Assembly (NCBI GenBank): GCA_011526085.1
Contig: WYBC01000019.1
Location: forward strand, 62,001 to 126,000
Reading direction: 5' to 3'
Source: Lysobacter sp.
Lineage (GTDB): Bacteria > Pseudomonadota > Gammaproteobacteria > Xanthomonadales > Xanthomonadaceae
Length of the DNA stretch: 64,000 nucleotides
Positions 30,727 to 50,027 of the stretch are shown in pieces. The stretch's first letter is position 1, and each line of letters starts with the position of its first letter. Below the pieces are notes generated by a model. It worked only from the letters and a program-made list of their open reading frames with translations, had not been told where the DNA came from and did no database searches. A program made the translations under genes and the position numbers.

Positions 30727-30800
30727 TGGAGCGGGTGATGGGAATCGAACCCACGCTAGCAGCTTGGGAAGCTGCAGTTCTACCATTGAACTACACCCGC
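30727..30800 (-). tRNA. tRNA-Gly (anticodon CCC)
   Basis: A complete 74-base tRNA with encoded CCA. The acceptor stem is GCGGGTG/CACCCGC. The anticodon stem GCAGC/GCTGC encloses TTCCCAA, giving anticodon CCC for GGG codons. The T-loop GGTTCGATTCC is canonical. A TACACT -10 box (30816-30811, minus strand) lies just upstream. Confidence 0.96.
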
Positions 30801-38765: not shown

Positions 38766-39411
38766 TCGGCCGCACGGGCATGCGCCACCCCGCCGGTCGC
38801 GAGTCGGAATCCGGGCATCGCTCCGGACCGGGACGCCGCCGCCCCGGCGGGCGGTCACGCTGCCATGGCCCACGCCGGAAGGCGGCAATGTTCTGACGGC
38901 TGCACGCACGTCGGCGCTTCCGCGCCGCCGGCCCGCGTCGTTCGGAGACAGGTGGGCGCTCGCATCGTCGTCGATACTGAAACAGCGGACGCTCGAAGCC
39001 ATCGAAAGCGGTGCGGGCCGCGATCGCGGTCGCCGGAACCCAACCGGACACCGAAAACCTGAACAGGCTGCGGCCCATGGAGGCACCGCAGCGCGGGGCG
39101 CCGCCGGATCATGCGCAGTCGCGGCATCACTGAGCCGCAAGGTCCGGCCGCTGGCCGTTCGGGCCCCTTCGCCGCGTTTGGTCATCTGACGGACGTTGTA
39201 CAGTCCGTCGCAAGCCACGACACTTGGATCGCCACCGTCTGCGTTTCCCCCGAGTACCGCATGACGCAGGGTGAAGCCGATCCAGCGCGACTGGCCCGCC
39301 GGCGCATCCGCACCGGCGCCGTGCCGGTCGATGTCGAACGATGCTGCATCCTCCTCCGATGGCGGTACGCGCTTCGCAGCAGGTCCCCCATCCCACCAGA
39401 CAGGTTTTCCC
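38766..39411. other. 646-bp gap between the two effector modules
   Basis: I see no supportable gene here. Open frames on both strands lack ribosome-binding sites and similarity. The only structured element is the dyad at 39188-39209. The gap may carry the promoter of the second module, and possibly remains of the duplication that made the two modules. Confidence 0.5.
39188..39209. promoter_or_regulatory. Dyad upstream of the second effector module
   Basis: GACGGA (39188-39193) and TCCGTC (39204-39209) flank a ten-base centre containing TTGTAC. It lies about 200 bases before the start of the second small protein gene and is a candidate operator. Confidence 0.3.
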
Positions 39412-39900
39412 ATGGATCAGACCAATACCGCCCAACACGCCGAAGACATCGGCCGCCGCGTGCTGCGGCTCGCCGAGAACGTCCGCGGCCCCGACGACAT
39501 CGCCCCCGCGCGGATCGAACAACTCACCGGCATCCCGGTCGAATTCAATCCCGACGACGCCAACGAATACGGCTTCGGCGGCCAGCTCACCGACGCCTGG
39601 GCCTACAACCTCGTGTCCCTGCCCGAAGGCGACCGCAAGCCGTCGCGGATCATGTTCTCGTTCGACGACGAAAGCCGGGCCAACGCCGACATGACGCCGA
39701 TCTGCGCGCTCGACTTCGACGACTACGCCGCGGCGCTGGAAGCCGCCGGTTTCCGCTCGAAGGCGAACCGCGGCCCGCACGACCGCGTCCTGTACTGGGA
39801 CTTCTCGCGCGAAGACGTGTCCGTGCAGATCTACGTGCGCGGCGAAAGCGACGCGAAGGCGGACCACGCCTGCGTCTCCAAACTCATCATCAACGCCTGA
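39412..39900 (+). CDS. Small cytoplasmic protein, probable immunity/partner of the effector at 39912
   Basis: A 162-residue paralogue of the protein at 36860, sharing the motifs listed there. The start is the ATG at 39412, where similarity begins. It ends 11 bases before the effector ATG. It is acidic and has no signal peptide or membrane helix, so if it is an immunity protein the toxin must act in the cytoplasm. The two copies differ enough that each may protect only against its own effector. Confidence 0.6.
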   Translation: MDQTNTAQHAEDIGRRVLRLAENVRGPDDIAPARIEQLTGIPVEFNPDDANEYGFGGQLTDAWAYNLVSLPEGDRKPSRIMFSFDDESRANADMTPICALDFDDYAAALEAAGFRSKANRGPHDRVLYWDFSREDVSVQIYVRGESDAKADHACVSKLIINA

Positions 39901-39911
39901 GGGATACCGAC

Positions 39912-41237
39912 ATGGCCGCCATTCCCGAAGACGTCCTGAAGAAAATGGCCGCGGACAAGAAGGCCGCGGAAACGAAACTGGAGAAGATCCTCTCCGATTT
40001 CGAGAAAGCCCACGACACGAAGACCGAAACGCCCGGCAAGAACCTGCGCGGGCTGCTCGACAACTCGCCGGACCTGAAGGCGCGCATCCTCGATTCGGTG
40101 CAGAAGGGCCACCTCGAGAAATTCGACGTGCTGCCCGCCGGCGCGAACGCCGGCGGCACCTACAGCCCCGACACCAAGACCATCGAACTGCCGGCGGATT
40201 ACCTGAAGAAGGCCGGCAAGGACAAGGCCGCCGCGGCCGAGCTGGTGTTCGTGATGGGTCACGAGATCCAGCATTCGTTCAACAGCACCGTGAGCGACAA
40301 GGCCACCGACGCGTTCGTCAAGGACGTGGGCAAGATCGCGAAGGGCCCCGGCCCGCACGACTACACCAACGCGGTCAAGACCCTGATCCAGAACTACCGC
40401 GAGGACGAGGCCGGCGCCCACATCGGCGGCTTCAACGCGATCGCCTCGCAGGTGATGAAGGACAATCCGAAGGCCGGCCTGAAGGAACTCTACAACGCCC
40501 ATCCGGGGCGCATGGAAGACTTCATCGAACGCAGCGGCAAGGCGCCGAAGTTCAGCTACGCGCTGAAGCCGGGCCTGACCCTGGAAGCCGACAACACGAT
40601 GAAGACCACGCCCGAGAACGTGAAGGCGATGGGCAAGCACTACTTCGACCAGCCGCCGAGTTCGGCGCGGCTCGGCACCAAGGGCAACCAGGACTATCCG
40701 AACTACTACGGCGAATGGGCGCTCAACGTCATCAACGACACCGAGAAGCGCGCGCTGGCCGAGGCCAGGAAGGCCGATCCGAAGGCGGTCGCGCCCGAAG
40801 TGAAGATCGACATGAAATCGATCGGCCTCGACAAGTCGCTGCTCGACACCGGCCTGAAGTTCACCGACAGCAGCCCGAAGAAGCCGAGCGTCGAAGCGCC
40901 GGCCCCGGAACCGGCGCTGTATCGACAGGCGGAAGACGCGCTGAAGAAGGTCGACGGCCTCGGCCTGAAAGGCGAGGAATTGCGCAACGTCGCCGCCGCC
41001 ACCGCGCTGCAGGCGCAGACCTCCGGCATGGAGCGCATCGACGGCGCGCTGCTCGGCAAGAACGGACAGGTCTTCGCCTATCAGGGCGATCCGACCAGCG
41101 AATCCGCCGACCGCATCGCGGTGAACGTCGCCCAGGCCAAGCAGCAACCGGCCGACCAGTCGCTGGCGACGCTGATGGTGCCCGACCCGCAGCAGGCGCC
41201 GGCCCAGCAGCAGACCGCGCGCAGCGTGGGCATGTAG
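39912..41237 (+). CDS. Putative X-T4SS effector: HExxH domain plus XVIPCD-like tail (copy 2)
   Basis: A 441-residue paralogue of the protein at 37380. It opens with a Lys/Glu/Ala-rich helix (1-40), then NLRGLLDNSPDLKARILDSV, which is shared with copy 1 (HSADLKARTLEVV). The zincin site is VFVMGHEIQHSFN (HExxH, 117-121) with YREDEAGAHIGGFNAIAS downstream. The C-terminal XVIPCD-like domain (about 333-441) is a better match than in copy 1: PALYRQAEDALKKVDG, MERIDGALLGKNGQVFAYQG, QPADQSLATLMV, and a Gln-rich end (PQQAPAQQQ). It closes the second module and is followed by a terminator. Confidence 0.68.
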   Translation: MAAIPEDVLKKMAADKKAAETKLEKILSDFEKAHDTKTETPGKNLRGLLDNSPDLKARILDSVQKGHLEKFDVLPAGANAGGTYSPDTKTIELPADYLKKAGKDKAAAAELVFVMGHEIQHSFNSTVSDKATDAFVKDVGKIAKGPGPHDYTNAVKTLIQNYREDEAGAHIGGFNAIASQVMKDNPKAGLKELYNAHPGRMEDFIERSGKAPKFSYALKPGLTLEADNTMKTTPENVKAMGKHYFDQPPSSARLGTKGNQDYPNYYGEWALNVINDTEKRALAEARKADPKAVAPEVKIDMKSIGLDKSLLDTGLKFTDSSPKKPSVEAPAPEPALYRQAEDALKKVDGLGLKGEELRNVAAATALQAQTSGMERIDGALLGKNGQVFAYQGDPTSESADRIAVNVAQAKQQPADQSLATLMVPDPQQAPAQQQTARSVGM

Positions 41238-46031: not shown

Positions 46032-46388
46032 TGTAGGAGCACCGGCTTTCAACAGCCGAAGGCTGGTCAAGGCGCGACAAACAACGCCGCCCGCCCGAAG
46101 CTGCCACGGTAGTTGCGATGCATCTCACCCGGATTCAGGGATCGCCTGCCCCGCATCCGGCGCCTCGTGCTTACCTCGATGCAACAACGGAAACTGCAAA
46201 TTCCTGTTTCAAATCAAGCGCAACGCATTGATGTCGAAAGCATTCCTGGAACCCGGCATCCCCGCACAGCCCCACCTCCCGTCGTCCCGGCTCAGGCCTG
46301 ACCCCGCCTTTCGATAGCCGCTGGCGTCTCCGTCAGCCCTTGGGGGTGAGCCGGCCTTCGACAGCCGAAGGTGGGTCAAGGCGCGACG
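46032..46388. repeat. Two copies of an AGCCGAAGGCTGG element
   Basis: Copy 1 (46032-46080) reads GTAGGAGCACCGGCTTTC, then AACAGCCGAAGGCTGGTC, then AAGGCGCGAC. Copy 2 (46351-46388) has CCTTCGACAGCCGAAGGTGG then GTCAAGGCGCGAC. The same core sits in the loop of the hairpin at 58044-58149. These are REP-related elements in the ~800-bp gap downstream of the large STAND gene; no gene is seen in the gap. Confidence 0.7.
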
Positions 46389-46417
46389 CGCTTCCGCTGC
46401 GGATGTTGGACTGTCCG

Positions 46418-46635
46418 CCCCTCATCTGCCCTTCGGGCACCTTCTCCCTGCCTACGGGGAGAAGGAGACGAGTGCAGGCGCGGGTTCTGTTGCGCAGCGC
46501 GAGTGCTTGATGTCCTTTCCCTCACGCACGCAGAGAAGGTGGTGAGTACCGGCGCGGAATCTGTTGCGCAGAGAACTCGGTTGTAATCCATCTCCCCACG
46601 CGTGGGGAGATGGCACCCGAAGGGCGGATGAGGGG
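46418..46635. repeat. Facing pair of CCCCTCATC...CTTCGGG elements
   Basis: The left element (46418-46464) reads CCCCTCATCTGCCCTTCGGG and ends in the hairpin CTTCTCCC/GGGGAGAAG. The right element (46588-46635) is its mirror: CCATCTCCCC/GGGGAGATGG, then CACCCGAAGGGCGGATGAGG. Between them TGTTGCGCAG is repeated directly (46489 and 46562). The pair looks like a small non-coding mobile or REP-type unit next to the STAND gene. Confidence 0.7.
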
Positions 46636-46723
46636 CCGCGAGCGAAGCCGGAGTTGCCGTCGACAGGCAGACACAGCACCAGAATCGATATGGCCCATGC
46701 TTTTTGGCTAGCGAGGATGGCGC

Positions 46724-49700
46724 TCACCCGGGCGGCACGCCCTCGTCACTTTCTCCGAAAATTCTCGCGATCAGACCCCGAATAATATCTACATCGGGCA
46801 AGCGCTGCCGCTCTGCCTCGGCAAGAGCGTTTTGCAACAGAAGAAATATCTCAGGCCCTTCTTCCAGTCGGCCACGTTTTGCCAACAAGAAAGCAAGATT
46901 AGTACGCCCCCTCATCAATGCTCGGGCATCACCCAAACGCTCATACACCGGCAACACTTCATTGCGCAAAATGTGCAGCGCATCTTCAAGATAGCCTTGC
47001 TGCTGAAGAATATTCGCTATTCGGCTTTGCGTAATGGCAACCAAATGCAAATCGCCGAATCGCTGATATACCGGCAATTGTTCTTCTCTTCGTATACGCA
47101 AAACTTTCTCTATTTCGCCTTGAATATGAAGGATGTCCGCAATCCGACCTTGCGTAGTTACATACGCACGAACATCACCCAGTTTCTCGTGAATCGGAAG
47201 AACCTCATCGCGTAGAATTCGCAATGACTCCTCCGTCTCGCCACGCGCCTGAAAAATTCCTGAAATTTGGCTCTTCGTTGCCGCGTACTCACGCAGATCG
47301 TTTAACCGCGCATACACCGGAAGCTCTTTTTCGTGCCGAATGCGCAATGCCTCATCATAATTTCCACGAACCTGCAGAACATCCGCGACCTTTCCATACG
47401 CAAGCGCTATCTCCCGATCCTTCCCGAATTTAACCGCATATGACACAGTTCTGTTTGCAAAATTTGTCGCGCGCTCCATATCGCCACACCCCAACGCCAA
47501 TTCGCATACAACCAAGCCTATAGCCAGCTTAATTTCTGGATCTGTGCACGCCTCCTGCCACCGATCAAAACAGTCAAGCCAAGCAGCAAGGGGGCCAATT
47601 GCACGGGCATAGTCACGGGCACTCATCAGCTGCAATGTTTCGGGCCGAAATCCCTGGGCCAACCACTGCTCGAGTGCCGAAGACTCACGCTGTATCGTTC
47701 TCCGAGCAGCGCCGACGACGTGCTCGCCCTCTTCCGACAATAGTTGCGCGAACCAATCTCCCATCCGCGCCATCACCGTCGCTACATCCGGCTGAGGCAA
47801 TGCACGCAGAAATTCCGCGACCAGTGCATGCAATCGCACCCGACGTTCGCGCATCTCTCCTTCGCCTACCCACTCCCATTCCAACAAGCTGAGGCGACTG
47901 GCAGCGACGATGCAGGGACCGTACTGGTCTTGCGACAGATCGGTAATGGCAGCGCCGAGAGATTCACCCACGCCTTCGGCCGGCCCATGGGCCAAAGCCA
48001 CCAGTGCCTGCTGCCATTCATTGCGACTGCTCGCACCCGCGCACCATGCTTTCCATGAAATATCGAACGAACTGCGCAAAATTGCGCGCGCCCGGTTCAC
48101 ATGCAAGCTGTGGTCGCCGTATTGCGCGGGCGCCAGATCCAGACCGGTAGCGCGCAGTTCGTCGAGGAATTCCGTAGGAGTCTTGCCCAGACCGAGATGG
48201 CTGGCGGCGATATGCAGGGCCAGCGGCAGGCGGCCGAGCGTTTCGGCCAAATGCTGCGCCTGTGCTTCTGTCGGCACACAGGCGTCTTCACCTGCGGCTT
48301 TGGCCTCTTCGCGCAGTAGTTTGATGGCGTCTGTCATCAACAGCGGCGCCAAATCGACCCGTTTCCAAGCCTGACCGCCGAACTTGCGCACGCGGGCGGT
48401 GACCAGTATCGGGCAACCGGGCAGCCCGTGCACCAGAGCTGCCACCTGCTCGGCCTGGGCATCGCTGTCCACGTTCTCGATCAGCACCAGACGCGGATGG
48501 CCGCCGGGGCCATGTTGCAGGGTAGGCGGCAGATCGCGGCGGACATCGTCGATCGTGCCTCTGACGTTCAGCCGGTCGGCAAGATCGCGCAACAACGCAT
48601 CGGCGCTGCGCACGACAGTCTGGTCTTCGCCCGAAACCAGCACCAGACGCAACACGCATTCACCGGTGGGCGTGTCCGGCGGCGGCAGATAGGCCTGCAG
48701 CCAGTGTTCGGTGATGAACTCCTCCGCCAACCGCGTCTTGCCCACGCCCGGCATGCCGTCGATGGCGCAGCAGATCACGGTGGGTTGAACTCCGGCTCCG
48801 TTGTCCTCAGGCAGCAGCGCCTTGCACAATTGCTTGAGTTCGCTCTCGCGGCCGACGCAGCGGCCAGGGGTCGAGGTGAAAGCAACGGCCGGTTCTGGAT
48901 CGAGCACCAACCACCCATTCCGACTGTCGCGATACAGCCCATCGTGATTGTGCCAATGCCCGTTCGCGGACCATGCCCGGGTCTGCACCCGCACAGGACG
49001 CAGCGGCGCATGTTCGGGCAGCTCGATTTCGATCAGCGACAGCCCGTTGGGGTAATGCTGGCTTTCGTAAAGACAGCCGGCGGCGAAGACGGACAATCTG
49101 CGCTGCGGGTCCGCCCAGGTTTCGATTTTCCCGGTGTGCTGATGGCCATGCAGCAGCAGGCCGAGCCCGTAGTCGGCCATGAGTTGCTTGGCACGATCAC
49201 CATCGGCCAGATCGCCCGGCGGGTGGTGGATCAGACCGATGCTCCAGCCGGGCAGGCGCTTGCCTTCGTGGGTCATCAGCCTGCCGATCTGATCCTCGGT
49301 CAGATGCAATTTGCTGGCATCGTTGTCGTCGCCGGCCAGCCATGCACTGTCGAAACCGATGATGTGCAGCGGTGCGCCGAGGCCGAGATCGAGGGTGTGG
49401 CGATAGCCCAGGCGCGGGTGCGGGTTGCCCGCCTGTCCGGGCAACAGATGCGCGAGACCCGTTTCGACGAGAAAGTCGCGATACGCCTGCTGCCTGGCCA
49501 ACAGTGCATCGCGCGCAGCGTCCTTGAAACCCGCCGGCGCGCGCGACCTCGGCTTTTTACGGCCGGTGGCTGGAGCGACCGACAGCGGATTCTCCGCGAA
49601 CCAATCGCTGAATGCGTGCGGTGCGTTCGCGAGCGCCGGGCGGAGCTTGCGCCACACGCTTTTCATGATCTCGCGATCGATATCGTGATTGCCGGGAACA

Positions 49701-49966
49701 CAGAAGAAGCGCTGCAGCGGACATTCGACCCGTGCCTGCACATTGCGGATCACGTCCTTCAAACGATGGTACTGATCCGCCCTGCCCGACTGCGCGAGAT
49801 CTCCGGTGAAACAAACGAGATCGATCTGGCCGTCTTTGCGGATCTCGGTGAGGTTGCGATCCCATGCCTCGCCCATCACGCGTTCAACGCGGTAGGCGTT
49901 TTCCGGCTTTTCCTTGCCGATATGCAAATCCGACAGATGCAGAATGCGTAGTCGCTGATTGGTCAC
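46724..49966 (-). CDS. Phosphoesterase-NB-ARC-TPR fusion (STAND NTPase, putative defence protein)
   Basis: A 1080-residue protein in three parts. Residues 1-320 are a calcineurin-like metallophosphoesterase: ILHLSDLH (Asp13, His15), FTGDLAQSG (Asp56), VPGNHD (Asn93, His94), IGLIHHPP (His247) and LLHGHQH (His275, His277), all metal ligands intact. Residues ~365-720 are an NB-ARC ATPase: Walker A GMPGVGKT (404-411), Walker B LVLIENVD (493-500), GLPL-like LGRLPLALHIAA (577-588) and MHD-like RLHALVAEFL (711-720). Residues ~815-1050 are TPR-like repeats with a 41-residue period (GxxxEALRIxxEExLPVYxR). The start is the GTG at 49966 with AGGGGAGG nearby; translation further upstream has no support. 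Bacterial STAND proteins are known phage sensors; this combination suggests that target binding by the repeats triggers a nuclease or phosphodiesterase. Confidence 0.82.
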   Translation of the reverse strand: MTNQRLRILHLSDLHIGKEKPENAYRVERVMGEAWDRNLTEIRKDGQIDLVCFTGDLAQSGRADQYHRLKDVIRNVQARVECPLQRFFCVPGNHDIDREIMKSVWRKLRPALANAPHAFSDWFAENPLSVAPATGRKKPRSRAPAGFKDAARDALLARQQAYRDFLVETGLAHLLPGQAGNPHPRLGYRHTLDLGLGAPLHIIGFDSAWLAGDDNDASKLHLTEDQIGRLMTHEGKRLPGWSIGLIHHPPGDLADGDRAKQLMADYGLGLLLHGHQHTGKIETWADPQRRLSVFAAGCLYESQHYPNGLSLIEIELPEHAPLRPVRVQTRAWSANGHWHNHDGLYRDSRNGWLVLDPEPAVAFTSTPGRCVGRESELKQLCKALLPEDNGAGVQPTVICCAIDGMPGVGKTRLAEEFITEHWLQAYLPPPDTPTGECVLRLVLVSGEDQTVVRSADALLRDLADRLNVRGTIDDVRRDLPPTLQHGPGGHPRLVLIENVDSDAQAEQVAALVHGLPGCPILVTARVRKFGGQAWKRVDLAPLLMTDAIKLLREEAKAAGEDACVPTEAQAQHLAETLGRLPLALHIAASHLGLGKTPTEFLDELRATGLDLAPAQYGDHSLHVNRARAILRSSFDISWKAWCAGASSRNEWQQALVALAHGPAEGVGESLGAAITDLSQDQYGPCIVAASRLSLLEWEWVGEGEMRERRVRLHALVAEFLRALPQPDVATVMARMGDWFAQLLSEEGEHVVGAARRTIQRESSALEQWLAQGFRPETLQLMSARDYARAIGPLAAWLDCFDRWQEACTDPEIKLAIGLVVCELALGCGDMERATNFANRTVSYAVKFGKDREIALAYGKVADVLQVRGNYDEALRIRHEKELPVYARLNDLREYAATKSQISGIFQARGETEESLRILRDEVLPIHEKLGDVRAYVTTQGRIADILHIQGEIEKVLRIRREEQLPVYQRFGDLHLVAITQSRIANILQQQGYLEDALHILRNEVLPVYERLGDARALMRGRTNLAFLLAKRGRLEEGPEIFLLLQNALAEAERQRLPDVDIIRGLIARIFGESDEGVPPG

Positions 49967-50027
49967 GCCACACCTCCCCTGTGTCGGATCAGTATGCCGA
50001 AGACCACGGCGGCCGCAAGCGTGGAAA

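What the first reader, a model, noticed from the sequence alone, without database searches (positions are those of the whole stretch)
46724..49966. Phosphoesterase-NB-ARC-TPR protein as a candidate new defence system
A single 1080-residue gene joins a calcineurin-like phosphoesterase with all metal ligands (DxH, GD, GNHD, HH, GHQH), an NB-ARC ATPase with Walker A, Walker B, GLPL and MHD-like motifs, and about five 41-residue TPR-type repeats. Established knowledge: bacterial STAND NTPases (Avs, bNACHT and relatives) detect phage proteins through a C-terminal repeat sensor and fire an N-terminal effector. Here the effector would be a phosphoesterase, probably acting on nucleic acid or nucleotides. 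The gene sits alone between housekeeping genes (rpe-yegS and the DnaJ gene/purC), flanked by repeat islands, as is usual for defence inserts. The anti-phage role is inference.
Basis: partly seen in the sequence, partly recalled or inferred. Interest (0 to 1): 0.86.

Follow-up and report, generated by a model that had tools for sequence, protein, structure and literature searches.

The report
NLR-like phosphoesterase immune receptor gene
A bacterial gene joins a phosphate-cutting enzyme, a molecular switch of the plant-resistance-protein type and a repeat sensor; it is most likely an anti-virus alarm protein built like one already shown to protect bacteria, with a different switch and a sensor that seems to evolve as a separate module.

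Summary
The gene is real: minus strand, 46724-49966, 1080 codons. It encodes a calcineurin-type metallophosphoesterase (MPE) with all metal-binding motifs, an NB-ARC/AP-ATPase module (profile matches AfsR, plant NRC/Roq1 and APAF1 structures) and a C-terminal TPR solenoid. It behaves like an accessory gene: 2 of 10 congeners carry it, one at another locus; the rpe-dnaJ site lacks it in the 9 other genomes with both neighbours on one contig; it is 61-68% identical where purC and rpe are about 90-95%. The full architecture turned up in one genus of those sampled. This gene is not DS-8 (NB-ARC, far below that model's cut-off): a new variant. Unexpected: the sensor third differs in composition from the rest of its gene, and its 41-aa TPR unit recurs, nearly identical, behind other N-termini, suggesting a sensor cassette evolving on its own. 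No defence gene was found beside it. Anti-phage role and substrate are inferred.

The parts
46724..49966 (-). whole gene, 1080 codons, GTG start
49972..49980 (-). Shine-Dalgarno AGGGGAGGT; conserved with the two congeneric copies
49991..49998 (-). GGCATACT, a short block resembled in the two congeneric copies just upstream (-10-like by eye; the consensus scan reported no sigma-70 site)
48932..49966 (-). metallophosphoesterase effector, residues 1-345
   Evidence: Pfam; model pLDDT 76.4, pTM 0.82; fold matches
48167..48862 (-). NB-ARC/AP-ATPase nucleotide-binding module, residues about 369-600
47657..48166 (-). winged-helix-like/arm region with RLHALVAEFL in the MHD position, residues about 601-770
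   Evidence: domain name inferred
46757..47599 (-). TPR solenoid sensor, residues about 790-1070 (41-residue units at 858, 899, 940, 981, 1022)
46724..47653 (-). compositionally distinct 3' part of the gene (GC3 0.48 against 0.73), change-point at codon 771
46417..46636 (.). imperfect inverted repeat downstream of the gene (arms 46417-46466 and 46587-46636)
   Evidence: pattern from one arm has a single match in the genome
46042..46387 (.). 37-nt direct repeat pair downstream (46042-46078, 46351-46387), 2 matches in the genome

Best explanation
It is a single-gene bacterial NLR-like (STAND) immune receptor. The TPR solenoid senses an infection-derived ligand, probably a phage protein; ligand binding releases the NB-ARC module from its ADP-bound resting state so that it takes ATP and oligomerises; this brings the N-terminal metallophosphoesterases together and switches them on. 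The esterase then cuts a phosphodiester that infection depends on or that the cell cannot live without, most likely a nucleotide (class III cyclic-nucleotide-phosphodiesterase-like), less likely DNA in the Mre11/SbcD manner, stopping phage growth, probably at the cost of the cell. Shown here: the three modules, complete active-site motifs, dN below dS, patchy distribution at two loci. Inferred: ligand, oligomerisation, substrate, defence.
For: All five MPE motifs present; in 22 aligned sequences D56, H247 and H275 are invariant and N93, H94, D95, H277 nearly so (D13 and H15 are invariant too, but 21 of the 22 were fetched by a scan whose pattern holds those residues). MPE model: Rv0805 Z 20.4, GpdQ 20.0, purple acid phosphatase 20.0, SMPDL3A 18.7-19.0, Mre11 16.2-18.1 (rows within 1 are tied; Foldseek order similar). 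NB-ARC profile: AfsR 6.9e-18, NRC1 3.8e-6, Roq1 1.1e-4, APAF1 1.4e-4. dN/dS (NG86) 0.31/0.93 in the MPE and 0.24/1.15 in residues 346-800 between G000 and G005. Accessory behaviour: 2 of 10 congeners; absent from the rpe-dnaJ site in 9 of 9 other genomes with both neighbours on one contig; G005 copy elsewhere, beside a YfbK-type vWA gene; gene 61-68% identical against purC mostly 90-92.5% and rpe 92-96%. Among named MPE models the DS-8 (63.1 bits) and DS-9A (52.7) anti-phage models outscore CpdA (28.7) and SbcD (28.1); PADLOC effector 66.1 and PDC-S60 58.1 bits. DS-8 is validated and needs MPE and NTPase residues. The nearest MPE outside the genus, L030, sits in a SAV_2336-MPE-TIR-TIR protein.
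Against: No defence genes beside it: trpE, yegS-like, rpe, dnaJ-like and purC by Pfam, 0 of 10 neighbouring proteins matching PADLOC. No match in 50,697 phage records or in three viral-contig scans. The DS-8 match covers only the MPE (positions 1-272 of 994). The best solved NB-ARC match is a transcription regulator (AfsR), not an immune protein. The best fold match of all, Z 25.3, is an integrative model (9a6c_B, YYDD-YYDB) that says nothing on substrate. The NB-ARC part could not be modelled with confidence. Walker B is E-N rather than D-D and the MHD place reads LHA. The MPE tree backbone is weak and L030 has a long, uncertain branch.
Confidence: 0.68

Rival explanations
1. AfsR/MalT-like signal regulator: the NB-ARC-TPR module answers an internal metabolite or protein and the esterase adjusts a cyclic-nucleotide pool in normal physiology, not in defence.
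For: Best solved NB-ARC match is AfsR; fold of the esterase resembles cyclic nucleotide phosphodiesterases; lone gene among housekeeping genes.
Against: No DNA-binding domain among Pfam matches up to E 1; not found in 8 of 10 congeners and at two different loci, unlike a core regulator; more diverged than its neighbours.
Confidence: 0.14
2. Defence against plasmids, competitors or non-self conspecifics (allorecognition-like) by the same receptor mechanism, as for fungal TPR/WD NLRs.
For: Homogenised TPR units in relatives resemble fungal NLRs with highly conserved repeats (passages of PMC4986451).
Against: The validated bacterial MPE-STAND acts on phage; nothing here tests plasmids or kin.
Confidence: 0.1
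3. A decaying or non-functional import: the open frame persists but the diverged, AT-shifted repeats show loss of function.
For: The four clear repeat units are only 42% alike on average (31% with the degenerate fifth) and GC3 falls to 0.48.
Against: Frame intact over 1080 codons, motifs complete, solenoid still predicted with confidence from residue 869 on, dN well below dS in all three parts (dS at or near saturation).
Confidence: 0.08

Closest known systems
DS-8 (DefensePredictor, PMC13092281; NCBIfam NF053861)
   Same: One protein, N-terminal metallophosphoesterase plus STAND-type NTPase; MPE homologous over positions 1-272 of the model; SMPDL3A among the fold matches here and the authors' comparison for DS-8.
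   Different: DS-8 has NACHT, this has NB-ARC and a TPR array; 63.1 bits against a cut-off of 790; no match beyond the MPE.
Calcineurin-STAND fusions predicted by Kaur et al. 2021 (PMC8195603)
   Same: Calcineurin-type domain as one of several interchangeable N-terminal effectors on STAND NTPases (passages).
   Different: The passage seen concerns STAND-FGS proteins with NACHT, MNS or nSTAND1 modules; NB-ARC with TPR is not in the passages read.
NB-ARC-TPR proteins with other N-termini: L028 (trypsin), L029 (no Pfam effector)
   Same: NB-ARC 36% and 31% identical and the same kind of 41-aa TPR unit (one visible in L028 before the contig ends; three in L029).
   Different: Different or no recognised effector; in other families of the class.
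AfsR and plant NLRs (NRC1/2, Roq1), APAF1
   Same: NB-ARC/AP-ATPase module.
   Different: Different N-terminal output domains; plant NLRs carry LRR, APAF1 WD40 sensors (recalled).
MPE-nSTAND6 protein P0002 of congener G003
   Same: MPE 27% identical, STAND, C-terminal repeats; DS-8 model 110.4 bits in its MPE.
   Different: nSTAND6 (199 bits) instead of NB-ARC; other repeat type.

Membership tests
Metallophosphoesterase (calcineurin-like) | Five metal-ligand motifs and the fold | tested here: met
NB-ARC / AP-ATPase STAND | Walker A, Walker B, RNBS-B, GLPL in order | tested here: met
   Walker B reads E-N; motif names recalled
NB-ARC / AP-ATPase STAND | Pfam NB-ARC gathering score by this protein itself | tested here: not met
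   19.0 against 23.5 bits; two homologues pass and the profile finds AfsR/NRC/APAF1, so it is called NB-ARC-type by homology
NB-ARC / AP-ATPase STAND | MHD motif | tested here: inconclusive
   LHA at 712-714; LHP and IHP in the two aligned homologues
NB-ARC / AP-ATPase STAND | C-terminal superstructure-forming repeats | tested here: met
   TPR_12; solenoid
DS-8 anti-phage family | NF053861 full-length score above the curated cut-off | tested here: not met
   63.1 against 790 bits, MPE part only
DS-8 anti-phage family | NACHT domain | tested here: not met
   no NACHT match up to E 1 in Pfam
Avs / AVAST | match to a PADLOC Avs model | tested here: not met
   the four matches up to E 1 are an effector, PDC-S60, TPR and PDC-S73
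Anti-phage defence system | protection in a phage challenge | not testable with these tools
   needs a bench test
Anti-phage defence system | patchy distribution at more than one locus | tested here: met
Anti-phage defence system | clustering with other defence genes | tested here: not met
   0 of 10 neighbouring proteins match PADLOC; the G005 neighbour is a YfbK-type vWA protein, the rest of that contig read by eye only

The most novel reading that the evidence does not exclude
The 41-residue TPR unit is a transferable sensor cassette shared by bacterial NB-ARC/STAND receptors with different N-termini (MPE, trypsin, an unrecognised or CHAT-like one, none). It exists as arrays of near-identical units that then diverge unit by unit; the window copy is such a diversified array, grafted onto or evolving apart from a more conserved MPE-NB-ARC chassis. 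That would be a bacterial counterpart of the concerted evolution of fungal NLR repeats.
Probability: 0.35. Interest if true: 0.62.

Novelty: new variant of a known kind. Interest (0 to 1): 0.47.

Why it matters
It extends the freshly validated metallophosphoesterase-STAND defence design from NACHT to the NB-ARC branch, the one used by plant resistance proteins and APAF1, and gives a matched set for testing what the esterase cuts: one gene, complete motifs, congeners without it. If the sensor array really evolves as a separate, homogenising-then-diversifying cassette, bacteria would share with fungi a way of renewing NLR specificity, and the window/G005/G053/G341 genes are the material to test it.

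Tried and rejected
Prophage or phage origin: no match in phage records or in three viral-contig scans; not supported, though the scans start from short peptide patterns. tRNA- or RNA-linked insertion: the only tRNA in the window is tRNA-Gly at 30727, and there is no Rfam match in 44-52 kb. Dispersed-repeat insertion: the downstream repeats match only this place. Diversity-generating retroelement as the cause of the diverged repeats: no second copy of the repeat DNA in the genome, so no template repeat was seen; no search for a reverse transcriptase was made. The single genome-contig scan chose its patterns in the HLSDLHIG stretch, so it reached MPE relatives only and says nothing on NB-ARC relatives. 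Whole-protein alignment with L032/L033 was poor in the ATPase region and was not used for a model. Single-sequence model of residues 349-1080: NB-ARC part under pLDDT 50. The promoter scan found no sigma-70-like site; its shuffles gave 1.1 on average. Papers: full-text searches for metallophosphoesterase + STAND + anti-phage + tetratricopeptide, calcineurin-like phosphoesterase + NACHT + phage defense and NB-ARC + phosphoesterase + bacterial + phage gave 0 papers in the held library, which lacks most subscription journals; one search also gave 0; some searches gave listings, of which five papers were opened (passages of PMC7159879, PMC8195603, PMC10907252, PMC4986451; passages and section 7 of PMC13092281).

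Rows dropped before counts: G009 is left out of the rpe-dnaJ gap count because its contig ends inside the gene; L051 was used neither in the tree nor in the structure alignment, and loci from the genome search were kept out of the latter. In the repeat comparison four genes were measured; L028 (contig ends in the first repeat) and a G053 unit with unread bases were not.

Full report
WHAT IS THERE. The frame is real and intact: 1080 codons on the minus strand, 46724-49966. A longer mechanical frame exists upstream, but the GTG at 49966 follows AGGGGAGGT, and the same start context (CACAGGGGAGGTG) is shared with the copies of two congeners, while little beyond about 30 bases upstream is. Residues 1-345 are a metallophosphoesterase (Pfam 7.8e-17). 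Its five motifs are complete; in 22 aligned sequences D56, H247 and H275 are invariant and N93, H94, D95 and H277 nearly so. D13 and H15 are invariant as well, but the relatives were fetched with a pattern containing them, so that is no evidence. The AlphaFold2 model (mean pLDDT 76.4, pTM 0.82) matches Rv0805, GpdQ, purple acid phosphatases, acid sphingomyelinase/SMPDL3A and, somewhat lower, Mre11 structures. The top row in both lists, Z 25.3, is 9a6c_B, an integrative model titled YYDD-YYDB; its enzyme activity is not known to me. A fold does not give the substrate.

The middle is NB-ARC/AP-ATPase. This protein's own Pfam score is below the cut-off (19.0 against 23.5 bits), a result against a quick assignment. 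But a trypsin-NB-ARC protein (L028) and an NB-ARC-TPR protein (L029), 36% and 31% identical over the region, pass it, and a profile of four sequences finds AfsR (6.9e-18), NRC1, NRC2, Roq1 and APAF1 among solved chains. The C-terminus is a TPR solenoid of about seven predicted hairpins, confident from about residue 869, with five units in the 41-residue register, the last degenerate.

MOBILITY. Among 10 congeners, 2 have the gene: G005 (64% over residues 4-1016) and G009 (68% over 3-357, cut by a contig end); a third, G003, matches only in an MPE of another fusion. In the family sample 3 of 395 genomes and 1 of 54 genera have it at 1e-30; in the class sample only the window genome of 369 has MPE plus NB-ARC at 1e-20, two others matching the NB-ARC part alone; in the phylum sample only the window genome of 398 at 1e-15. 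The samples overlap, are drawn from larger groups, and score few candidates per genome, so rarity is a limited-sensitivity statement. The rpe-dnaJ distance is 4191 bp in the window genome and 17, 20, 96, 159, 293, 294, 992, 1008 and 1145 bp in the nine other genomes with both genes on one contig. G010 has there an outer-membrane beta-barrel gene, and the G001 and G003 stretches look alike by eye; so the site holds varied cargo. G009 has the gene beside dnaJ; G005 has it elsewhere, beside a YfbK-type vWA gene, its rpe-dnaJ site being short. Neighbouring purC is mostly 90-92.5% identical across the genus (86% over a 107-residue fragment in G005) and rpe 92-96%, the MPE 61-67%. The gene's first 790 codons have GC3 0.72 against 0.86-0.90 in nearby genes. 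Against an island: the neighbours are trpE, yegS-like, rpe, dnaJ-like and purC, and none of 10 neighbouring proteins tried matches PADLOC.

THE SENSOR IS A SEPARATE MODULE. GC3 falls from 0.73 to 0.48 at codon 771; none of 1000 codon permutations reaches the observed contrast (largest 74.5 against 119.8), and GC3 falls in 10 of the 11 amino acids tabulated, E rising. In G005 it ranges 0.63-0.88 along the gene and is 0.80-0.83 in the TPR part. Divergence from G005 (NG86 dN/dS) is 0.31/0.93 in the MPE, 0.24/1.15 in the middle, 0.39/2.03 in the C-terminal part; YN00 gives dS 1.35, 1.60, 1.85, a weaker contrast, and dS is at or near saturation. The four clear repeat units of the window gene are 42% identical in protein on average (31% with the degenerate fifth); those of G005 95% (98% in DNA), of a STAND-TPR gene in G053 90% (94%), of the G341 gene 84% (85%). 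Each window unit is 56-66% identical to the G005 unit but only 34-49% to its siblings, as expected if all diverged from one homogenised unit, though a shared TPR consensus would look similar. The unit is nearly the same in G005, G053 and G341, with different N-termini; the G053 N-terminus reads by eye like CHAT but has no such Pfam match at E 0.01, whereas an Azospirillum plasmid protein annotated as CHAT matches the window's TPR part at 41.9% beside a recombinase and TniQ/TniB genes. An array replaced or diversified apart from its chassis explains this; amelioration, relaxed selection or a low-GC donor of the C-terminal part remain possible. Homogenised repeats are described for fungal NLRs as a route to rapid change (passages of PMC4986451).

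WHAT IT PROBABLY DOES. Among named MPE models, those of anti-phage proteins score best: DS-8 63.1 bits, DS-9A 52.7, then CpdA 28.7 and SbcD 28.1, all below their cut-offs. In a tree of 27 MPE domains it groups (100/98) with the MPE of a Rubrivivax SAV_2336-MPE-TIR-TIR protein, apart from SbcD-like and short stand-alone enzymes, though the backbone is weak and that row's branch is long. Other MPE relatives are fused to an HSP90/GyrB-like ATPase (L048) or to long tails, with a sub-threshold TPR match in L033 only. On plasmids, an MPE protein of Sphingomonas (found with the G003 protein) lies near a recombinase, a DNA methyltransferase and an HNH gene, and the Thiodictyon one beside an integrase and an IS91 transposase. 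DS-8 (section 7 of PMC13092281) is a single protein with a metallophosphatase and a NACHT domain; mutating either of two catalytic residues or the ATPase residue abolished defence, and its substrate is unknown. Kaur et al. list calcineurin among the effectors displacing bDLD3 on STAND proteins (passages of PMC8195603). Hence the design is known and validated; the NB-ARC plus TPR form is not in the papers that three searches reached.

VERDICT. A new variant of a known kind. The sensor-module evidence is the part a specialist would not expect.

Noticed in passing
39111-41237, + strand: The C-terminal part matches X-Tfes_XVIPCD (57.1 bits), the tail of antibacterial type IV secretion effectors, behind a zinc-protease-like HExxH stretch (by eye); it hints at a Xanthomonadales host (recalled).
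   Followed up: partly
L025:10069-13563: Congener G003 carries another MPE-STAND fusion, MPE-nSTAND6, 1164 aa, with near-identical long C-terminal repeats (by eye); DS-8 model 110 bits in its MPE.
   Followed up: partly
L030:6255-9980: Rubrivivax gene SAV_2336-MPE-TIR-TIR, 1241 aa: an effector stack with the closest MPE outside the genus.
   Followed up: partly
L044:3298-7164 and L048:7971-11495: MPE fused to a long region; in L048 it matches an HSP90/GyrB-like ATPase, L044 was not scanned but its MPE pairs with that of L048 in the tree; a Bacteroidota and a Bacillota genome.
   Followed up: no
L014:9990-10502: The G005 contig ends inside almost identical TPR units (four measured), so the true array length is unknown.
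   Followed up: no
L018:1810-2646: A 278-aa outer-membrane beta-barrel gene (OMP_b-brl, 41.3 bits) fills the rpe-dnaJ gap in G010 where the window genome has the receptor; similar sequence by eye in G001 and G003.
   Followed up: partly
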